Below the pieces are notes generated by a model. That model was not told the DNA's origin. It searched no databases and saw only the letters and a list, made by a program, of their open reading frames with translations. Shown here piece by piece: positions 1,220 through 15,229 of a stretch of DNA of 42,215 bases (the stretch's first letter is position 1; each line of letters opens with the position of its first letter). A program made the translations under genes and the position numbers. This DNA is from Treponema sp. (GTDB lineage: Bacteria > Spirochaetota > Spirochaetia > Treponematales > Breznakiellaceae): assembly GCA_009782495.1 (NCBI GenBank), contig WRIX01000005.1:1-42215 (forward strand), read 5' to 3'.

Positions 1220-1247
1220 ATTTTAAGTGATTTATCTCCGTTGTCAA
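1220..1247 (-). promoter_or_regulatory. sigma70-type promoter of the FAD oxidoreductase gene
   Basis: On the minus strand TTGACA (1242-1247) and TAAAAT (1220-1225) are separated by 16 bp. The predicted transcription start falls at or next to the ATG at 1212, so the AGGAG before the ATG may not lie in the message. Confidence 0.6.
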
Positions 1248-1317
1248 GAAAATGGTACTGTAATACAAAGGCATCTTTATGGCCTTTTAATACCGTGGTT
1301 TGTATTCCCTCCTTACC

Positions 1318-1347
1318 TTGACAGCGTAAAAAAAAATAGTGTAGTCT
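1318..1347 (+). promoter_or_regulatory. putative promoter of the sugar-uptake operon
   Basis: TTGACA (1318-1323), an 18-bp A-rich spacer and TGTAGTCT containing a weak -10 (1342-1347) lie about 50 bp before the solute-binding protein gene. A 6-bp inverted repeat, AAAGGC (1267-1272) with GCCTTT (1282-1287), lies upstream and could be an operator. The -35 is convincing, the -10 is poor. Confidence 0.4.
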
Positions 1348-1395
1348 TTATTACCACTTTACTCAACATTAAAAACCAATTTTTTGGAGGAGAAA

Positions 1396-2682
1396 ATGAT
1401 GAAAATGAAGCATTTTTTGTTCGTATTGACAGCAGCGCTTCTGATTACCCTTGCTTTTGCGGGGTGTTCACAACAATCGGGCGCTTCTGCGGATGGTGCT
1501 GTTACAGAGATAACCCTTATCAGCAACAAGATCGAAATTGACGAAGCCTTAAAAGGTTTTGCGGCCGCATACGAGAAGCAGACCGGCGTAAAGGTCAATA
1601 TCAGGAGTTTCGGCGGAGAAACCCCTTATGCGCCGAACATTACTGCAATGTTCAATTCCGGCACGGAGCCTGAAATATTCGTCTTCGAAGGCAGAGCCGG
1701 ATACGAGGATGCCAAGCAATCGGGCAGACTTACCGACCTTTCGGGCGAGCCGTGGGTAAACGACACGGATGTCGCTTATATCGATCCGGCCGATGGTAAA
1801 GTCGTCGGTTTCCCGGTTGCAATAGAGGGTTGGGGCCTTGGCTACAACAAGGAACTCCTCGCCAAAGCGGGAGTGGATCCCAAAACCTTGGTGAATATCG
1901 ACGGTATCAGAGCTGCGTTTGAAAAAATTGATTCCATGAAGGCAACTCTCGGTATTGATGCGGTTGTCTCAATGGTATCCGGTCCCGGAATGACCTGGGT
2001 TACCGGTCTGCATGGAGTAAACTCCTACCTTACCCTTGGCCTCCCGTATAACAATTCCACAAAGTTCATTGATATGCTGAACAACGGGCAGGTTGACAGC
2101 GAGCGTCTTACACGATTCGCCGAATACATGAATTTGCTGTTCCGTTATTCCAACAGGAACACCCTGCTTACCGGCGGCTATGATCAGCAGCTTGGCGATT
2201 ATGCTATTGGCAAGACGGTGTTTATCCATCAGGGCAACTGGACGGATCCGACTTTTGCGGACTTGGGCATTACCTTTGAAATGGGCTATGTGCCGCATGC
2301 ATTCCTTCCCGAGACTACGGAAGGTATCTTCGTGGGCGCCCCTTCGTTCTATGTGATAAACGCAAAAGCCAAAGGAATAGATGAAGCCAGAAAGTTCCTT
2401 ATTGCCATGTCTTCCACCCCGGAAGGCCACGACTATATGGTGAATAAAGCCGGAATGGTTCCCGCATTTAAATCCTGCAGGCTGCAACCCGCTGGACAGT
2501 TTTCAAAGGCCGTTCAGGAATGGTCTGCTCAGGGTAAGATATACTCCTGGCAGCAGAACGACATGCCCGATGGTTTTGGCATGAATATCCTGGGGCCGAT
2601 ATTTGGTCAGATGGCTGCCGGACAGATTGATGTAAGAGAATTTGTGAACTTGTTCACTCAGGCTGTTGCCGATATCAAGTAA
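1396..2682 (+). CDS. ABC transporter sugar-binding lipoprotein (extracellular solute-binding family 1)
   Basis: The product is 428 residues. The N-terminus (MMKMK, a hydrophobic run, then LAFAGCS) is a lipoprotein signal peptide with a lipobox Cys, so the mature protein should be lipid-anchored on the periplasmic side. The rest has the shape of family 1 carbohydrate-binding proteins: a TEITLISNKIEIDEALKGF opening, a GWGLGYNKELLAKAGVDP segment near residue 150, an FIHQGNW segment and an FFINLFTQ-like amphipathic tail. ATG 1396 is chosen because GGAGGAG (1386-1392) sits 3 bp upstream; a TTG at 1384 would overlap that site. Two permeases and an alpha-glucosidase follow, so the ligand is probably an alpha-glucoside such as isomaltose, maltose, trehalose or sucrose. 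The exact ligand is not visible from sequence. Confidence 0.9.
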   Translation: MMKMKHFLFVLTAALLITLAFAGCSQQSGASADGAVTEITLISNKIEIDEALKGFAAAYEKQTGVKVNIRSFGGETPYAPNITAMFNSGTEPEIFVFEGRAGYEDAKQSGRLTDLSGEPWVNDTDVAYIDPADGKVVGFPVAIEGWGLGYNKELLAKAGVDPKTLVNIDGIRAAFEKIDSMKATLGIDAVVSMVSGPGMTWVTGLHGVNSYLTLGLPYNNSTKFIDMLNNGQVDSERLTRFAEYMNLLFRYSNRNTLLTGGYDQQLGDYAIGKTVFIHQGNWTDPTFADLGITFEMGYVPHAFLPETTEGIFVGAPSFYVINAKAKGIDEARKFLIAMSSTPEGHDYMVNKAGMVPAFKSCRLQPAGQFSKAVQEWSAQGKIYSWQQNDMPDGFGMNILGPIFGQMAAGQIDVREFVNLFTQAVADIK

Positions 2683-2700
2683 AAATCTTTTTCTTAACGG

Positions 2701-2737
2701 AAAACAGCATACGTCCTTTCCCGGTGTATGCTGTTTT
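2701..2737 (+). other. intercistronic stem-loop between binding protein and permease genes
   Basis: A perfect 12-bp stem, AAAACAGCATAC (2701-2712) with GTATGCTGTTTT (2726-2737), encloses a 13-nt loop. The Shine-Dalgarno GGAGG of the permease starts 2 nt after the stem. By analogy with other binding-protein operons it could protect the upstream message and limit permease expression. Confidence 0.75.
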
Positions 2738-2747
2738 CGGAGGCGGT

Positions 2748-3671
2748 ATGGGTAAAGTAAAAAATAAGACCAGCGGACCGCGGAACACCCCCTTGTTTTT
2801 TATATTTTTATTTCCGGCGGTCTTTGCGTTTGTTATGGTAATTGTAATTCCTTTTTTTATGGGAATATACTATTCTTTTACAAACTGGAATGCGATAACA
2901 GGTACACAGGTAAACTGGGTAGGGACGCGGAATTTCGCCGCAGTAACGAAAGATATTACATTCCTTCACTCGTTCATAATTACCTCCGTATACGCTGTTT
3001 TAAATATAGTTGTTCTAAACATCTGCGCGTTTTCTCTTGCCCTTTTGGTAACGAGTAAAATTAAGCTAACCGGAGTTTACCGCTCCGGGTTTTTCCTCCC
3101 GAACCTTATCGGCGGACTTATTTTAGGCTATATCTGGCAATTCATATTCAACAACGCCATACCTTCGTTTGGAGGCATGATAGGCTTTACGTGGCTAAAG
3201 GAAAATCAATTCCTTGCCCATCAGTATTTGGCGCTGCTGGCAATAGTCATTGTAGGTACATGGCAATATGCCGGATATATAATGATGATTTACGTGGCTG
3301 CCATACAGACCATTCCTACTTCGCTCATGGAAGCCGCGGAAATTGACGGTGCAACTTACCGGCAAAGGCTCAGACATATAATGTTTCCCCTGGTTGCTCC
3401 GGCATTCACGGTTTCAATGTTCCTTACCCTTATAAACTCTTTCAAACAGTTTGACGTGAACTTTGCGCTTACCGCCGGCGGACCTTCGGGTATGTTTATG
3501 GGCAGAGCGCTCATGACCAATGAATTTCTGGCGCTGAACATTTACCAGACGGCGTTTTCGTTCCGCCAGCTGGCTCAGGGGCAGGCAAAAGCAATTATTT
3601 TCTTTTTGGTGATTGCGGTTATTTCGTTGATTCAGGTACGTTTTAATAAGCGAAAGGAGATTGAGATGTGA
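2748..3671 (+). CDS. sugar ABC transporter permease, MalF/UgpA type
   Basis: The product has 307 residues with about six hydrophobic membrane segments. The cytoplasmic EAA loop is clear in the second half (LMEAAEIDGATYRQRLRHIM), the docking site for the ATPase subunit. An N-terminal positive segment (KVKNKTSGPR) precedes the first membrane span. ATG 2748 is chosen over the upstream in-frame ATG 2724 because GGAGG at 2739-2743 precedes it with proper spacing and 2724 lies inside the stem-loop. It forms a heterodimeric channel with the next gene, whose start overlaps its stop. Family assignment is firm; the substrate is inferred from the glucosidase downstream. Confidence 0.92.
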   Translation: MGKVKNKTSGPRNTPLFFIFLFPAVFAFVMVIVIPFFMGIYYSFTNWNAITGTQVNWVGTRNFAAVTKDITFLHSFIITSVYAVLNIVVLNICAFSLALLVTSKIKLTGVYRSGFFLPNLIGGLILGYIWQFIFNNAIPSFGGMIGFTWLKENQFLAHQYLALLAIVIVGTWQYAGYIMMIYVAAIQTIPTSLMEAAEIDGATYRQRLRHIMFPLVAPAFTVSMFLTLINSFKQFDVNFALTAGGPSGMFMGRALMTNEFLALNIYQTAFSFRQLAQGQAKAIIFFLVIAVISLIQVRFNKRKEIEM

Positions 3672-4543
3672 TGAAAAGGAAAAACAGCGCATCCATTCTG
3701 GAAATTATTGCAATTATTGTTTTCTTGTTATACATGATTCCTTTCGCCATAGTAGCGATAAATTCTTCAAAACCGTCACTTAAGATCATTATGGATCCCC
3801 TGGCGTTTCCGGAGAATCCTTTACAGCTCATTGCCAACATTAAAACGGTAATTGAAAGCCCCAATGTCCGTTATGTATCGTCCTTCGTTTCGACGATTAT
3901 AATAACAGTTGTATCTGTCGGCCTTCTTGTGTTGATCGCATCTATGGGAGCATGGGTTCTTGTGCGTACCAAAACAATGCTTTCCAATGTAATATTTATG
4001 ATTTTTGTAGCGGCTATGGTAATACCCTTTCAGGTGGTAATGTTCCCATTAATTTCCTGGTTCCACCTTATTGAAGTTAAACTGGGCCTCTTGCATACAC
4101 CGTTCAGGCTGCTGCAGAATTACCCGGGAATTATTTTTGCCTACATGGGTTTTGGCTCGTCTCTCTCGATATTTCTTTTCCACGGATTTATCAAATCAAT
4201 TCCGCTTGAGCTTGAAGAGGCCGCCACCATTGATGGCTGTTCAAGGCCGGCTACTTTTTTCAGAATAGTTTTCCCGATTCTTACGCCGATTACTGTTACT
4301 GTAATGATTTTGAACGGTATATGGATTTGGAACGATTACCTGCTGCCTCTTTTGCTGCTTGGTTCGGGTAACGCCATACAAACGCTTCCTCTTGCCGTGG
4401 CGAGCTTTGTCGGATCGTTTGTAAAGAAATGGGACTTGATTCTTACCGCCACCATGATGACCATGCTGCCGATTATCATAGTGTTCCTGATACTGCAAAA
4501 GCACATTATCAAAGGCATGGTGGAAGGCTCTGTAAAGGGATAA
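3668..4543 (+). CDS. sugar ABC transporter permease, MalG/UgpE type
   Basis: This second inner-membrane permease has 291 residues, six likely spans and the EAA motif (LELEEAATIDGCSRPATFF) in its last third, as in MalG-like partners. GTG 3668 and ATG 3671 are both possible starts; GGAG at 3656-3659 is 8 bp from GTG and 11 bp from ATG. Either way it overlaps the upstream stop codon, indicating translational coupling and roughly equal synthesis of the two permeases. No ATP-binding gene follows, so the transporter must borrow an ATPase; the MsmX-like gene at 19356 is a candidate. Confidence 0.92.
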   Translation: MMKRKNSASILEIIAIIVFLLYMIPFAIVAINSSKPSLKIIMDPLAFPENPLQLIANIKTVIESPNVRYVSSFVSTIIITVVSVGLLVLIASMGAWVLVRTKTMLSNVIFMIFVAAMVIPFQVVMFPLISWFHLIEVKLGLLHTPFRLLQNYPGIIFAYMGFGSSLSIFLFHGFIKSIPLELEEAATIDGCSRPATFFRIVFPILTPITVTVMILNGIWIWNDYLLPLLLLGSGNAIQTLPLAVASFVGSFVKKWDLILTATMMTMLPIIIVFLILQKHIIKGMVEGSVKG

Positions 4544-12780: not shown

Positions 12781-13389
12781 ATGACGCTTTTTTGCTTTCT
12801 CTGGACACCGTTGTTTTACCTCTTCTGGCGGTCTTTGAACGATGAATCAGCTCTGGAAGGGGGAACGTGGGCTCTCCTGATGGGGATGATTATTGCTTTT
12901 TTCCGGTTTTTCCTCGGAACTTTTGTTAATGCCGGAGGTTTTGGCTTTGAACGATGGGTTTCCGCCTGTATTGATGTGGTGGCTCTTCCGGTGGCGCTGC
13001 CGTTTATTATTTGCGTGATATTTGCCCTTTTACGTATTATTTCTGCTCAGGCAAATTTTACCAATTATGCCTTTCTCTGGCTTATCCCGGTTGCGGCGGT
13101 GCGCACACTTGGCTGGAGTTCTCAGAATAACCCTATTTTACTTATGGGAGTTCCTGTTCTGTGGACTGCGGTAGCCCTTGGCATGGGACTCTTTATAGGT
13201 TTAGCCAAGAACGGCTGGGGACTGGTATTAATTCCTGCTATTCTGGGGGCAATTGCACTTCCCTTTGTCGGTGCAACTGCCTATTGGGCTCTGTTTGCCC
13301 AGTATAACCTTCTTGGGATAGGCCTTCTCGTTGTATGCTGTATCCCTATGGCTATTTCGATAGTTATGTCGTTTTTGGAGAAAAAGTAA
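12781..13389 (+). CDS. hypothetical integral membrane protein
   Basis: I do not recognise this family. The 202 residues include about six hydrophobic segments (for example LLMGMIIAFFRFFLGTF, VALPVALPFIICVIFALL, LLGIGLLVVCCIPMAISIV) and a short charged C-terminus, so it is an inner-membrane protein with little outside the bilayer. No strong ribosome-binding site precedes ATG 12781. It is divergent from infC, and its stop codon touches the outer end of a large foldback repeat. No neighbour hints at its role. Confidence 0.7.
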   Translation: MTLFCFLWTPLFYLFWRSLNDESALEGGTWALLMGMIIAFFRFFLGTFVNAGGFGFERWVSACIDVVALPVALPFIICVIFALLRIISAQANFTNYAFLWLIPVAAVRTLGWSSQNNPILLMGVPVLWTAVALGMGLFIGLAKNGWGLVLIPAILGAIALPFVGATAYWALFAQYNLLGIGLLVVCCIPMAISIVMSFLEKK

Positions 13390-13764
13390 AAAACCCCAAT
13401 CTGCCTCTGAGCTTGGCATATGTAAACCTGTAGTATTGTATGGAAAGAGGCAGGGAAAGCCCTGATAAGAGCGCCTGTAAAATCCATTGGCCGGGCTGAA
13501 CGCATCAATCTTCCCATATCGGTGGGAGGAGGAACACTCATTCAGACCATAGTGGTCGTGGCTGCAGTTGACGGACGCTTTGGCGTCACTACTGTTGTAT
13601 CACGCCAAATGGTCTTCATGAGTAACCCCCCTCCCACCTATGTGGCAACATTAGTTTCGATGTGTTCAGTCCGGCTTTTGGTAATTACCGACCTTGTACC
13701 CACCTCTTTCCAAAAAATACTGCTTAACACGATATGCCAGGATCAGGGGCAGATTAAGGTTTTT
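13389..13764. repeat. foldback element 1: 376-bp imperfect palindrome
   Basis: The stretch reads as a decayed inverted repeat centred near 13580. Complementary blocks are symmetric about one point: 13389-13395 with 13758-13764, 13398-13405 with 13748-13755, 13415-13421 with 13732-13738, 13441-13450 with 13703-13712, 13490-13501 with 13664-13675, 13521-13529 with 13630-13638, 13536-13541 with 13618-13623, and 13544-13549 with 13610-13615. The core is a hairpin, GACGC (13574-13578) with GCGTC (13583-13587). Between blocks the arms have diverged, with a few small indels. The left arm starts exactly at the stop of the membrane-protein gene. No transposase was found. Confidence 0.75.
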
Positions 13765-13772
13765 ATGGTGGA

Positions 13773-14227
13773 TGTAATCGGCATTTTACCGGTGAGCATC
13801 TGTCAAACCATGATCCGAAATAATGCTGGAAAAGGGCTGAAAACACTTAGATGCAGTACTCTTTTGATAGGTAATAAAGGCGCTACCTATAGCCAATGCC
13901 GGGGCGCAGTAGGGGTACAAAAACTATCCTGGAATTCCCTGCCGGCAGACCAGCGAAATAAAAGTAATACTATATAAGAAAGGCTCGGCGTCTAAACAGT
14001 ATATTTTTTCTGATTAAAACGAATAGGAAAAATATGCTGTTTAGACGCTGAGAGGCTGTAAGGCAGGTTCTTCCAGAGTTTTTGCTACTCCGCTGTGCTC
14101 CCGGACGTTGGCTGTGGGTAGCGGCATGGTAACATATAAAATGATTACAGAGGTTACTCAGCCCTTTCCCAGGCTTAATGCAGACAATGTAAATGACAGA
14201 TGCTCAGCGGTAAATTGGGGATTTTAG
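13773..14227. repeat. foldback element 2: about 450-bp imperfect palindrome
   Basis: A second inverted repeat lies directly after the first. The left arm 13784-13805 matches the complement of 14194-14214 almost perfectly, 13831-13840 pairs with 14158-14167, and 13879-13934 is recognisably complementary to 14071-14125. The centre is the tight hairpin listed separately. The outer end (14202-14220, complement) matches the outer end of element 1 (13394-13412) at 16 of 19 positions, so the two elements are related and the pair has terminal inverted repeats. The right arm ends 4 bp before the fba stop codon. Confidence 0.7.
13984..14052. repeat. 25-bp hairpin at the core of foldback element 2
   Basis: Arm 13984-14008 (CTCGGCGTCTAAACAG and on) pairs with 14028-14052 over 25 positions. 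Only two pairs are not Watson-Crick, and both are G-U in the plus-strand RNA. The loop is 19 nt. It is far better preserved than the outer arms, and no T-run follows it on the plus strand. Confidence 0.85.
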
Positions 14228-14230
14228 CTC

Positions 14231-15229
14231 TTATGCCTGTCCCGCCGATCCCAGAACCGTTTTGTTCTTTTCCGCATACATTTTCTTTAGTTCATCCCTG
14301 GCAGGGCCCAGATACTTGCGCGGATCAAACTCATCGGCTTTTTCTGCAAAGGTTTTACGAATCATGGCTGTCATGGCCAGGCGGCCGTCACTGTCGATGT
14401 TGATCTTGCAGACGGCGCTTTTTGCCGCCGTTCGAAGCTGTTCCTCGGGTATACCAACAGAGTCGGGGAGTTTTCCGCCGAATTGCTCGATGATCTTTAC
14501 GTATTCAATGGGTACCGAAGAAGCACCGTGAAGAACAATGGGGAATCCGGGGATTTTCTTTTCAATTTCTTCCAGGATGTCAAAACGGAGCGGAGGGGGA
14601 ATCAGTATCCCGTTGGCATCTTTGGTACATTGTTCTGGTTTGAATTTTGCCCTTCCGTGGCTTGTACCGATGGAGATTGCCAGCGAGTCGACCTTTGTTT
14701 TGTTTACAAAGTCGATTACCTCCTCTGGCTGAGTATAATGGCTTTGTTCGGCCACTACATCGTCTTCTACACCTGCTAAAACGCCCAATTCACCTTCTAC
14801 TGAAACATAATCCTTTTGCGAATGGGCAAAATCGACTACTTTTCGGGTTAGAGCAACGTTTTCATCGTACGGTTTGCTGGAACCGTCGATCATAACGCTG
14901 GAAAAGCCTGTTTCAATACAGTCTTTGCACAGTTCAAAGGTATCACCGTGGTCCAGATGAAGGACTATCGGAATGTCGTAACCCAGTTCATTGGCAAATT
15001 CCACAGCACCCCGGGCCATGTTTTTTAACAGATTCTGGTTGGCGTATTTCCTGGCGCCGGAAGAGACCTGTAAAATAACCGGAGATTTGGTTTCAACACA
15101 GGCCTGTATAATAGCCTGTAGCTGCTCCATATTGTTAAAGTTGTAAGCCGGGACGGCATATCCGCCGGAAATCGCTTTTTTAAAAAGTTCAACGGTATTG
15201 ACAAGGCCCAATTCTTTATAACTGGTCAT
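14231..15229 (-). CDS. fba: fructose-bisphosphate aldolase, class II
   Basis: A 332-residue zinc aldolase cleaving fructose-1,6-bisphosphate in glycolysis. Motifs include the AYNFNNMEQLQAII opening, HLDHGD with the catalytic Asp and a zinc His, VSVEGELG, GTSHGRAKF with a zinc His, VLHGASSVP, and the phosphate-binding NIDSDGRLA. AAGGAG lies 6 bp before the ATG at 15229. It is transcribed toward the foldback elements, which may act as its 3' boundary because no ordinary terminator is visible. Next to it on the far side are the flaA genes, an arrangement I recall from other treponemes. Confidence 0.97.
   Translation of the reverse strand: MTSYKELGLVNTVELFKKAISGGYAVPAYNFNNMEQLQAIIQACVETKSPVILQVSSGARKYANQNLLKNMARGAVEFANELGYDIPIVLHLDHGDTFELCKDCIETGFSSVMIDGSSKPYDENVALTRKVVDFAHSQKDYVSVEGELGVLAGVEDDVVAEQSHYTQPEEVIDFVNKTKVDSLAISIGTSHGRAKFKPEQCTKDANGILIPPPLRFDILEEIEKKIPGFPIVLHGASSVPIEYVKIIEQFGGKLPDSVGIPEEQLRTAAKSAVCKINIDSDGRLAMTAMIRKTFAEKADEFDPRKYLGPARDELKKMYAEKNKTVLGSAGQA

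What the first reader, a model, noticed from the sequence alone, without database searches (positions are those of the whole stretch)
13389..14227. Two back-to-back decayed foldback elements fill a convergent intergenic region
The 840 bp between the stop of the membrane-protein gene and the stop of fba are two consecutive imperfect palindromes of about 376 and 450 bp. Complementary blocks are symmetric about each centre (listed under the features), and the outermost ends of the pair are inverted copies of each other (13394-13412 against 14202-14220, 16 of 19 identical). The four arms look like copies of one sequence of roughly 150-220 bp. This resembles a MITE or foldback transposon without a transposase, or a large structured RNA. 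The elements begin and end almost exactly at the flanking stop codons, so they could also act as 3' boundaries for both genes. I do not recognise the family.
Basis: partly seen in the sequence, partly recalled or inferred. Interest (0 to 1): 0.7.

Follow-up and report, generated by a model that had tools for sequence, protein, structure and literature searches.

The report
Tip-conserved palindromic repeats in termite-gut treponemes
The gap between two genes is filled by two large DNA hairpins from a family of scattered repeats in termite-gut treponemes; they look mobile, but unlike ordinary small transposons it is the hairpin tip, not the ends, that evolution has kept.

Summary
In detail: 13389-13766 and 13776-14227 are two long imperfect hairpins (fold z about -11 and -13), and their outermost ends are inverted copies. 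The claim that all four arms copy one sequence does not hold. The region is a dispersed repeat: 74 BLAST matches in this genome, including an 88% near-full copy. Two hairpin classes exist, each with its own conserved tip. The type-1 tip (13537-13623) is found in 29 of 150 genomes and 16 of 57 genera of this family, and in no other family of the phylum sampled. Sixteen of 17 pairs show compensatory change; the two inner helices have 416 Watson-Crick pairs and no G.U in 38 sequences. Between genera the tip is 66% identical and the arms 37% (shuffled 31%). Copies occur in all gene orientations, are present or absent at orthologous sites, and nest inside one another at the tip. No transposase accompanies them; Y1 transposases were not detected in several copy-rich genomes, and IS110 was found only as an insert into broken copies. 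Best reading: non-autonomous mobile palindromes recognised by their DNA hairpin tip. No mobilising protein, target duplication or transcript was found.

The parts
12781..13389 (+). flanking membrane-protein gene, 202 aa; its stop codon abuts the element
   Evidence: ORF list
13389..13766 (.). hairpin 1: type-1 unit nested at the tip of arms of the type-2 arm class
   Evidence: DNA fold z -11.1; arms homologous to a type-2 arm in L061, 54/78 identical, no shuffle as good
13389..13491 (+). outer 5' arm of hairpin 1
   Evidence: aligns with the 3' arm, score 55 against shuffle maximum 23
13674..13766 (-). outer 3' arm of hairpin 1, ending in ...GATTAAGGTTTTT
13492..13673 (+). type-1 unit: inverted ends CGGGCTGAACGCATC ... 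GATGTGTTCAGTCCG; also found in other arm contexts elsewhere in the genome
   Evidence: alignment A2 of 20 copies; model R2 hits in G000, G004, G001, G002, none in G003
13537..13623 (+). conserved type-1 tip: stem GGTCGT/ACGCC with one bulged pyrimidine, internal loop of two ~13-nt strands, apical stem
   Evidence: R3 hit 77.7 bits; 16 of 17 pairs compensatory; 29 of 150 family genomes
13574..13587 (+). apical 5-bp stem and TTTG loop, GACGC-TTTG-GCGTC
   Evidence: 100% of cells paired in 38 sequences; a ~30-bp mini-hairpin is inserted at this loop in L034, L039, L042, L047
13754..13781 (+). linker TTAAGGTTTTTATGGTGGATGTAATCGG; similar sequence lies between the two hairpins at other loci
   Evidence: seen in L036, L041, L051, L053, L061
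13776..14227 (.). hairpin 2: type-2 hairpin with its own core
   Evidence: DNA fold z -12.8
13776..13943 (+). 5' arm of hairpin 2
   Evidence: score 81 against shuffle maximum 32; in L035 the same arm (132/152 identical) carries a type-1 unit at its tip instead
14062..14227 (-). 3' arm of hairpin 2
13925..14081 (+). type-2 core with conserved GGAATTC...CAGACC and GAGAGGCTG strands
   Evidence: R1 hit E 8.2e-27, one of 17 hits in the genome; 11 of 17 pairs with compensatory change
13984..14052 (+). tip hairpin of the type-2 core; stem sequence differs between copies but stays complementary
13394..13412 (+). left outer end CCCCAATCTGCCTCTGAGC, inverted copy of 14202-14220
   Evidence: direct reading, 16/19; the genus-level end motif CCNCAATTTACCGCTGAG has 18 matches in the genome against 0 for the reversed control
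14202..14220 (-). right outer end, CCCCAATTTACCGCTGAGC on the minus strand
14231..15229 (-). flanking fba gene, convergent
   Evidence: orthologues 86-97% identical in related genomes

Best explanation
The region is two adjacent copies of a family of non-autonomous mobile palindromes of the termite-gut treponeme family (probably Breznakiellaceae; the family name is inferred). Each copy forms a long hairpin; the tip is the conserved functional part and the arms are exchangeable. Most likely a trans-acting protein that I did not identify recognises the tip as a DNA hairpin or cruciform, and copies enter intergenic DNA, with a marked tendency to lie at the tip of hairpins already present. Arms are later shuffled by recombination between copies and trimmed by deletion. 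At this site the pair occupies the short space between two convergent genes where relatives carry an ordinary terminator or different DNA. Shown: repeat family, conserved tip with compensatory change, tip-to-tip nesting, presence/absence at orthologous sites, arm exchange. Inferred: mobility by transposition, DNA-level recognition, the partner protein. Not shown: target duplication, transcript, any protein binding.
For: 74 matches in the own genome and many in three of four congeners, none in the fourth. Site polymorphism: at the L044 site G001 and G003 have no element, G004 one hairpin and G000 two; at the L042 site G000 has 671 bp with two type-1 units and G004 has 153 bp without a model hit. 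Arm exchange: the G004 copy at the L044 site has an A-type left arm and a C-type right arm. Nesting at tips: C arms carry either the type-2 core (window) or a type-1 unit (L035, L037, L044, L046), and a mini-hairpin sits in the type-1 apical loop at four loci. Compensation: 133 double-change cells against 31.6 +/- 7.0 in shuffles; slid pairings reach 33-54% paired against 94%. No G.U among 417 scored cells of the inner helices. Tip 66% against arms 37% identity between genera.
Against: No target-site duplication was found, even in five G162 copies with visible boundaries. No mobilising protein: Y1 transposases not detected in G000, G001, G002, G009 and G012, IS110 not detected in G001, G002, G004 and G009; flanking genes of 46 loci are ordinary. 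A DNA reading is indirect: absence of G.U could also come from transcription of both strands or from few independent events, as the 38 sequences are related. In the 40-nt arms A.C mismatches (98) exceed G.U (57), so a minus-strand RNA is not excluded. Genomes are incomplete drafts, so absences are soft.
Confidence: 0.5

Rival explanations
1. A multicopy structured RNA: the tip is an RNA domain bound by a protein, the long arms stabilise it, and copies are spread by unrelated recombination or retrotransposition.
For: Strict compensatory change, a conserved single-nucleotide bulge and two internal-loop strands, and a second complex core in the type-2 hairpin are typical of functional RNAs.
Against: No G.U pair in the inner helices, no fixed orientation to neighbouring genes (convergent 16, tandem 23, divergent 12 of 51; core orientation in tandem 11 against 12), complete absence from many genomes of the same family, no Rfam match at threshold.
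Confidence: 0.2
2. Ordinary MITEs of a DDE-type insertion sequence, nested by repeated insertion, whose parent element is missing from these draft genomes.
For: Within the genus the ends share an inverted motif CCNCAATTTACCGCTGAG, copies are numerous, and nesting is common in MITEs (general knowledge).
Against: Between genera the ends and arms are nearly unrelated while the tip is kept, the reverse of a MITE; no target duplication recognised; no recurrent transposase beside 46 loci examined.
Confidence: 0.15
3. Large bidirectional transcription terminators or 3' boundary elements of convergent genes.
For: The window copy and L031 fill the space between two convergent stops almost exactly; A-tract, G+C-rich stem and T-tract at the outer ends; in sister genus G005 this junction holds a plain terminator hairpin.
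Against: 12 of 51 copies lie between divergent genes and 23 between tandem genes in either orientation (crude gene calls).
Confidence: 0.07
4. REP/BIME repeats mobilised by a REP-associated Y1 tyrosine transposase (RAYT).
For: Dispersed intergenic palindromes in modular, mosaic arrangements; one cluster hit by IS110 as REPs often are (PMC1525189, PMC2817692).
Against: Units of 180-450 bp rather than 20-40 bp; Y1_Tnp not detected in G000, G001, G002 or G009, which carry 8 to 29 or more copies each.
Confidence: 0.03
5. A stand-alone relative of IS110 bridge RNA, in which the variable internal-loop strands act as guides.
For: Stem, internal loop with two variable strands, and apical stem resemble one bridge-RNA loop (PMC11208160).
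Against: IS110 recombinase not detected in G001, G002, G004 or G009; the two IS110 genes in G000 lie inside broken type-2 copies rather than beside a type-1 tip, and no R3 match lies in 16 IS110-region loci.
Confidence: 0.03

Closest known systems
Miniature inverted-repeat transposable elements of bacteria (Correia, RUP, MITEAba12; PMC10969869, PMC2229807, PMC6382973)
   Same: Short non-coding dispersed palindromes without a transposase, variable in copy number, intergenic, nested
   Different: Across genera the tip is conserved and the ends diverge; no target duplication or parent insertion sequence found; units of 180-450 bp nest tip to tip
REP sequences, BIMEs and RAYT transposases (PMC2817692)
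   Same: Dispersed intergenic palindromes in modular mosaics, targets of IS110-type insertion (PMC1525189)
   Different: About ten times larger, and no Y1 transposase detected in several copy-rich genomes
IS110 bridge RNA (PMC11208160)
   Same: A stem with a two-strand internal loop and an apical stem; loop strands vary more than stems
   Different: No IS110 recombinase detected in three of the four copy-bearing genomes of the genus; here the structure is dispersed in dozens of copies and shows no G.U in its inner helices
Integron attC sites (from general knowledge)
   Same: Imperfect hairpins with conserved extrahelical bases that act as folded single strands
   Different: attC conserves its base and varies at the tip; here the reverse; attC core motifs were not searched for

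Membership tests
MITE | non-coding, multi-copy, dispersed | tested here: met
   ORF not kept in the sister copy
MITE | terminal inverted repeats shared by copies | tested here: inconclusive
   shared within the genus (18 matches, 0 control), not between genera (arm identity 37% against 31% shuffled)
MITE | target-site duplication | tested here: inconclusive
   none recognised at compared sites or in five aligned G162 copies; empty sites too diverged to settle it
MITE | a parent transposase with matching ends | tested here: inconclusive
   none recurrent beside 46 loci among the 25 Pfam families printed; only Y1 and IS110 families were tested genome-wide, in incomplete genomes
REP/BIME | palindrome of 20-40 bp | tested here: not met
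   units of 180-450 bp
REP/BIME | cognate Y1 (RAYT) transposase in the genome | tested here: not met
   PF01797 not detected in G000, G001, G002, G009 (genomes 64-86% complete)
IS110 bridge RNA | located beside an IS110 recombinase gene | tested here: not met
Known Rfam family | score above the gathering threshold | tested here: not met
Structured RNA | conserved secondary structure with compensatory change | tested here: met
   (also expected of a DNA hairpin)
Structured RNA | transcribed | not testable with these tools
   no expression data
Structured RNA | G.U pairs tolerated in helices | tested here: not met
   0 of 417 scored cells in the inner helices
Integron attC | conserved core sites at the base of the hairpin | not tested
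   only the opposite conservation pattern was seen

The most novel reading that the evidence does not exclude
A class of selfish DNA, confined to one bacterial family, whose identity lies in the DNA hairpin tip and not in its ends: a tip-recognising protein moves or copies the hairpin and places it at the tip of other hairpins, so that elements grow by nesting and can change arms from host to host while keeping the tip.
Probability: 0.2. Interest if true: 0.8.

Novelty: new variant of a known kind. Interest (0 to 1): 0.62.

Why it matters
Small bacterial mobile repeats are defined by their ends. A family kept by its hairpin tip, with arms free to change, would point to an unknown DNA-hairpin-recognising mobiliser or to an unknown chromosomal function of hairpin tips. 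The family is large enough (dozens of copies, 16 genera) for the question to be tested with complete genomes and a cultured member. Palindromes of 400 bp are also expected to be unstable in bacteria with normal hairpin-cutting nucleases (general knowledge), so these genomes may be permissive in an interesting way.

Tried and rejected
Rfam at gathering and at E 5: only chance matches to microRNA families on the tip hairpin D. Plasmid and phage collections by distant BLASTN: no match. IMG/VR pattern scan: one hit, a real copy on the bacterial side of a prophage junction between an oxidoreductase gene and a tRNA gene. Protein-coding reading of 13522-13977: rejected. Terminator as general role: unlikely. 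Y1 and IS110 as movers: unlikely. Clean empty site with target duplication at fba: not obtained; in G003 another gene lies between, in G005 the junction is a ~160-bp terminator region, in G004 the contig starts inside a type-2 hairpin. Literature searches on treponeme repeats found nothing relevant.

Full report
Check of the observation. The region 13389-14227 folds into two long hairpins, 13389-13766 and 13776-14227. As one RNA the region has an MFE of -403 kcal/mol against -247 +/- 9 for shuffles, z -17.9; as DNA the halves have z -11.1 and -12.8 and no shuffle folds as well. Arm-to-arm alignments inside each hairpin are far above shuffles; hairpin 1 arms against hairpin 2 arms are at shuffle level except for the outermost 24 bp. 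So the coordinates and the palindromes are right, and the idea of four copies of one arm is not. The flanking genes end at 13389 and 14231. The 151-aa frame through the region is broken in the 88% identical sister copy.

A dispersed family. The region has 74 BLAST matches in its own genome, among them a near-complete copy on contig C2 (88%) and many partial ones. Mapping the modules shows a mosaic: the type-1 unit (13492-13673) occurs inside the arms of hairpin 1, inside the arms of hairpin 2 in place of its own core (L035, L037, L044, L046), and in simple arms alone. Hairpin 1 of the window has arms homologous to a type-2 arm (54/78 identical to L061, no shuffle as good), so here too a type-1 unit sits at the tip of type-2 arms. 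A further ~30-bp mini-hairpin, GGTAGACCACTTTCGTGGTCAA..., sits in the apical loop of the type-1 tip in L034, L039, L042 and L047 and at another place in L050. The pattern is hairpins nested at the tips of hairpins.

Two conserved cores. Type-2 core (model R1, from 14 copies): 11 of 17 predicted pairs have compensatory changes; 17 hits in G000, 16 in G004, 4 in G001, none in G002 and G003. The type-1 unit (model R2, from 20 copies) is found in G000, G004, G001 and G002 but not in G003, the best-assembled genome of the genus sample (both strands of one palindrome are often listed there). Across the family R2 and then the tip model R3 find it in 28 and 29 of 150 genomes, 16 of 57 genera. In a phylum-wide sample of 393 genomes only G000 and G063, both of this family, match. 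Contig lengths identify G004 with the Treponema sp. MAG Nt197P3bin20 (WRIB01).

The tip. In 38 sequences from about ten genera, 16 of 17 pairs change on both sides; 94.3% of cells pair, against 75.3% in shuffles and 33-54% when partners are slid; 133 double-change cells against 31.6 +/- 7.0. The inner helices are interrupted by a conserved bulged pyrimidine (GG-y-YGT / ACRCC) and by an internal loop of two strands of about 13 nt, often alike in sequence. In those helices 416 cells are Watson-Crick, one is unpaired and none is G.U. Selection on an RNA normally lets G.U through; a DNA hairpin or cruciform, or use of both strands, would not. Templated self-correction of palindromes would also give perfect pairing, but it should have erased the bulge and the loops, which are kept. 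This DNA reading is an inference. Between genera the tip is 66% identical and the adjoining 40-nt arms 37% (shuffled baseline 31%), while within a genome tip and arms are 77% and 73%. The arms are thus genome-specific and the tip is the lasting part.

Mobility and decay. Flanks of seven G000 copies were located in four congeners. At the L044 site G001 and G003 have the two genes almost abutting, G004 has one hairpin and G000 has two; the G004 hairpin combines a left arm of one class with a right arm of another. At the L042 site G000 has two type-1 units in 671 bp and G004 has 153 bp without a model hit. At several other G004 sites only end remnants or shortened hairpins remain. At one G004 junction two genes that each border an element in G000 lie 21 bp apart, so rearrangement has occurred at such places. 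No target duplication was recognised, also not in five G162 copies whose boundaries are visible in an alignment.

Context. Of 51 copies with two neighbours, 16 are between convergent, 12 between divergent and 23 between tandem genes, and core orientation is even among tandem ones (11 and 12; gene calls are crude ORF calls). Pfam scans of 82 neighbouring ORFs from 46 loci show ordinary metabolic genes in the listed families and no recurrent transposase (only the 25 most frequent of 115 families are printed). At the fba site the sister genus G005 has a plain terminator hairpin; G003 has another gene and a terminator.

Search for the mover. Y1 transposases (PF01797) pass the cut-off in 92 of 150 family genomes but were not detected in G000, G001, G002, G009 and G012. 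IS110 (PF01548) is found in G000 only on contig C127, where an IS110 gene interrupts a type-2 core and another lies in a nearby arm; both are insertions into a heap of broken copies, and G001, G002 and G004 have none. This resembles the known habit of IS110 elements to enter REP palindromes (PMC1525189, PMC11208160). No tip-model match lies in 16 loci around IS110 genes. The mover is unknown.

Verdict. A family of dispersed, nested, tip-conserved palindromes specific to one treponeme family. Mobility is well supported by distribution and site polymorphism but the mechanism is inferred. Filed as a new variant of non-autonomous palindromic repeats. It fails the size and transposase tests for REP/RAYT, and the transposase, duplication and end-conservation tests for MITE are inconclusive. 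Nearly all genomes used are drafts, so absences carry that limit.

Noticed in passing
L236 (G000:C127) 1240-4200: Two IS110-family transposase genes (1597-2688 + and 3090-4181 -) sit inside a heap of broken palindromes; the first interrupts a type-2 core between about 1345 and 2740.
   Followed up: partly
L034, L039, L042, L047, L050: A ~30-bp mini-hairpin GGTAGACCACTTTCGTGGTCAA is inserted at the apical loop of the type-1 tip (elsewhere in the tip in L050).
   Followed up: partly
L173, L174, L175 (G162), right of the element: The right half of the G162 element recurs in partial copies downstream, so right halves alone are also repeated.
   Followed up: no
L045 about 1312-1372: A short tandem array of TTGTCTG-type units upstream of a type-1 copy, followed by a strong A/T-rich hairpin.
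   Followed up: no
L197 (G004:C20, contig positions 26268-26290): Two genes that each border an element in G000 are direct neighbours, 21 bp apart, in G004: a rearrangement whose break points coincide with elements.
   Followed up: partly
L235 1100-1500: An IMG/VR contig carries a type-1 copy beside a tRNA gene and a phage-type integrase, on the bacterial side of a prophage junction.
   Followed up: partly
genome G003: One congener, the best assembled of the genus sample, has no detectable copy of either type.
   Followed up: no
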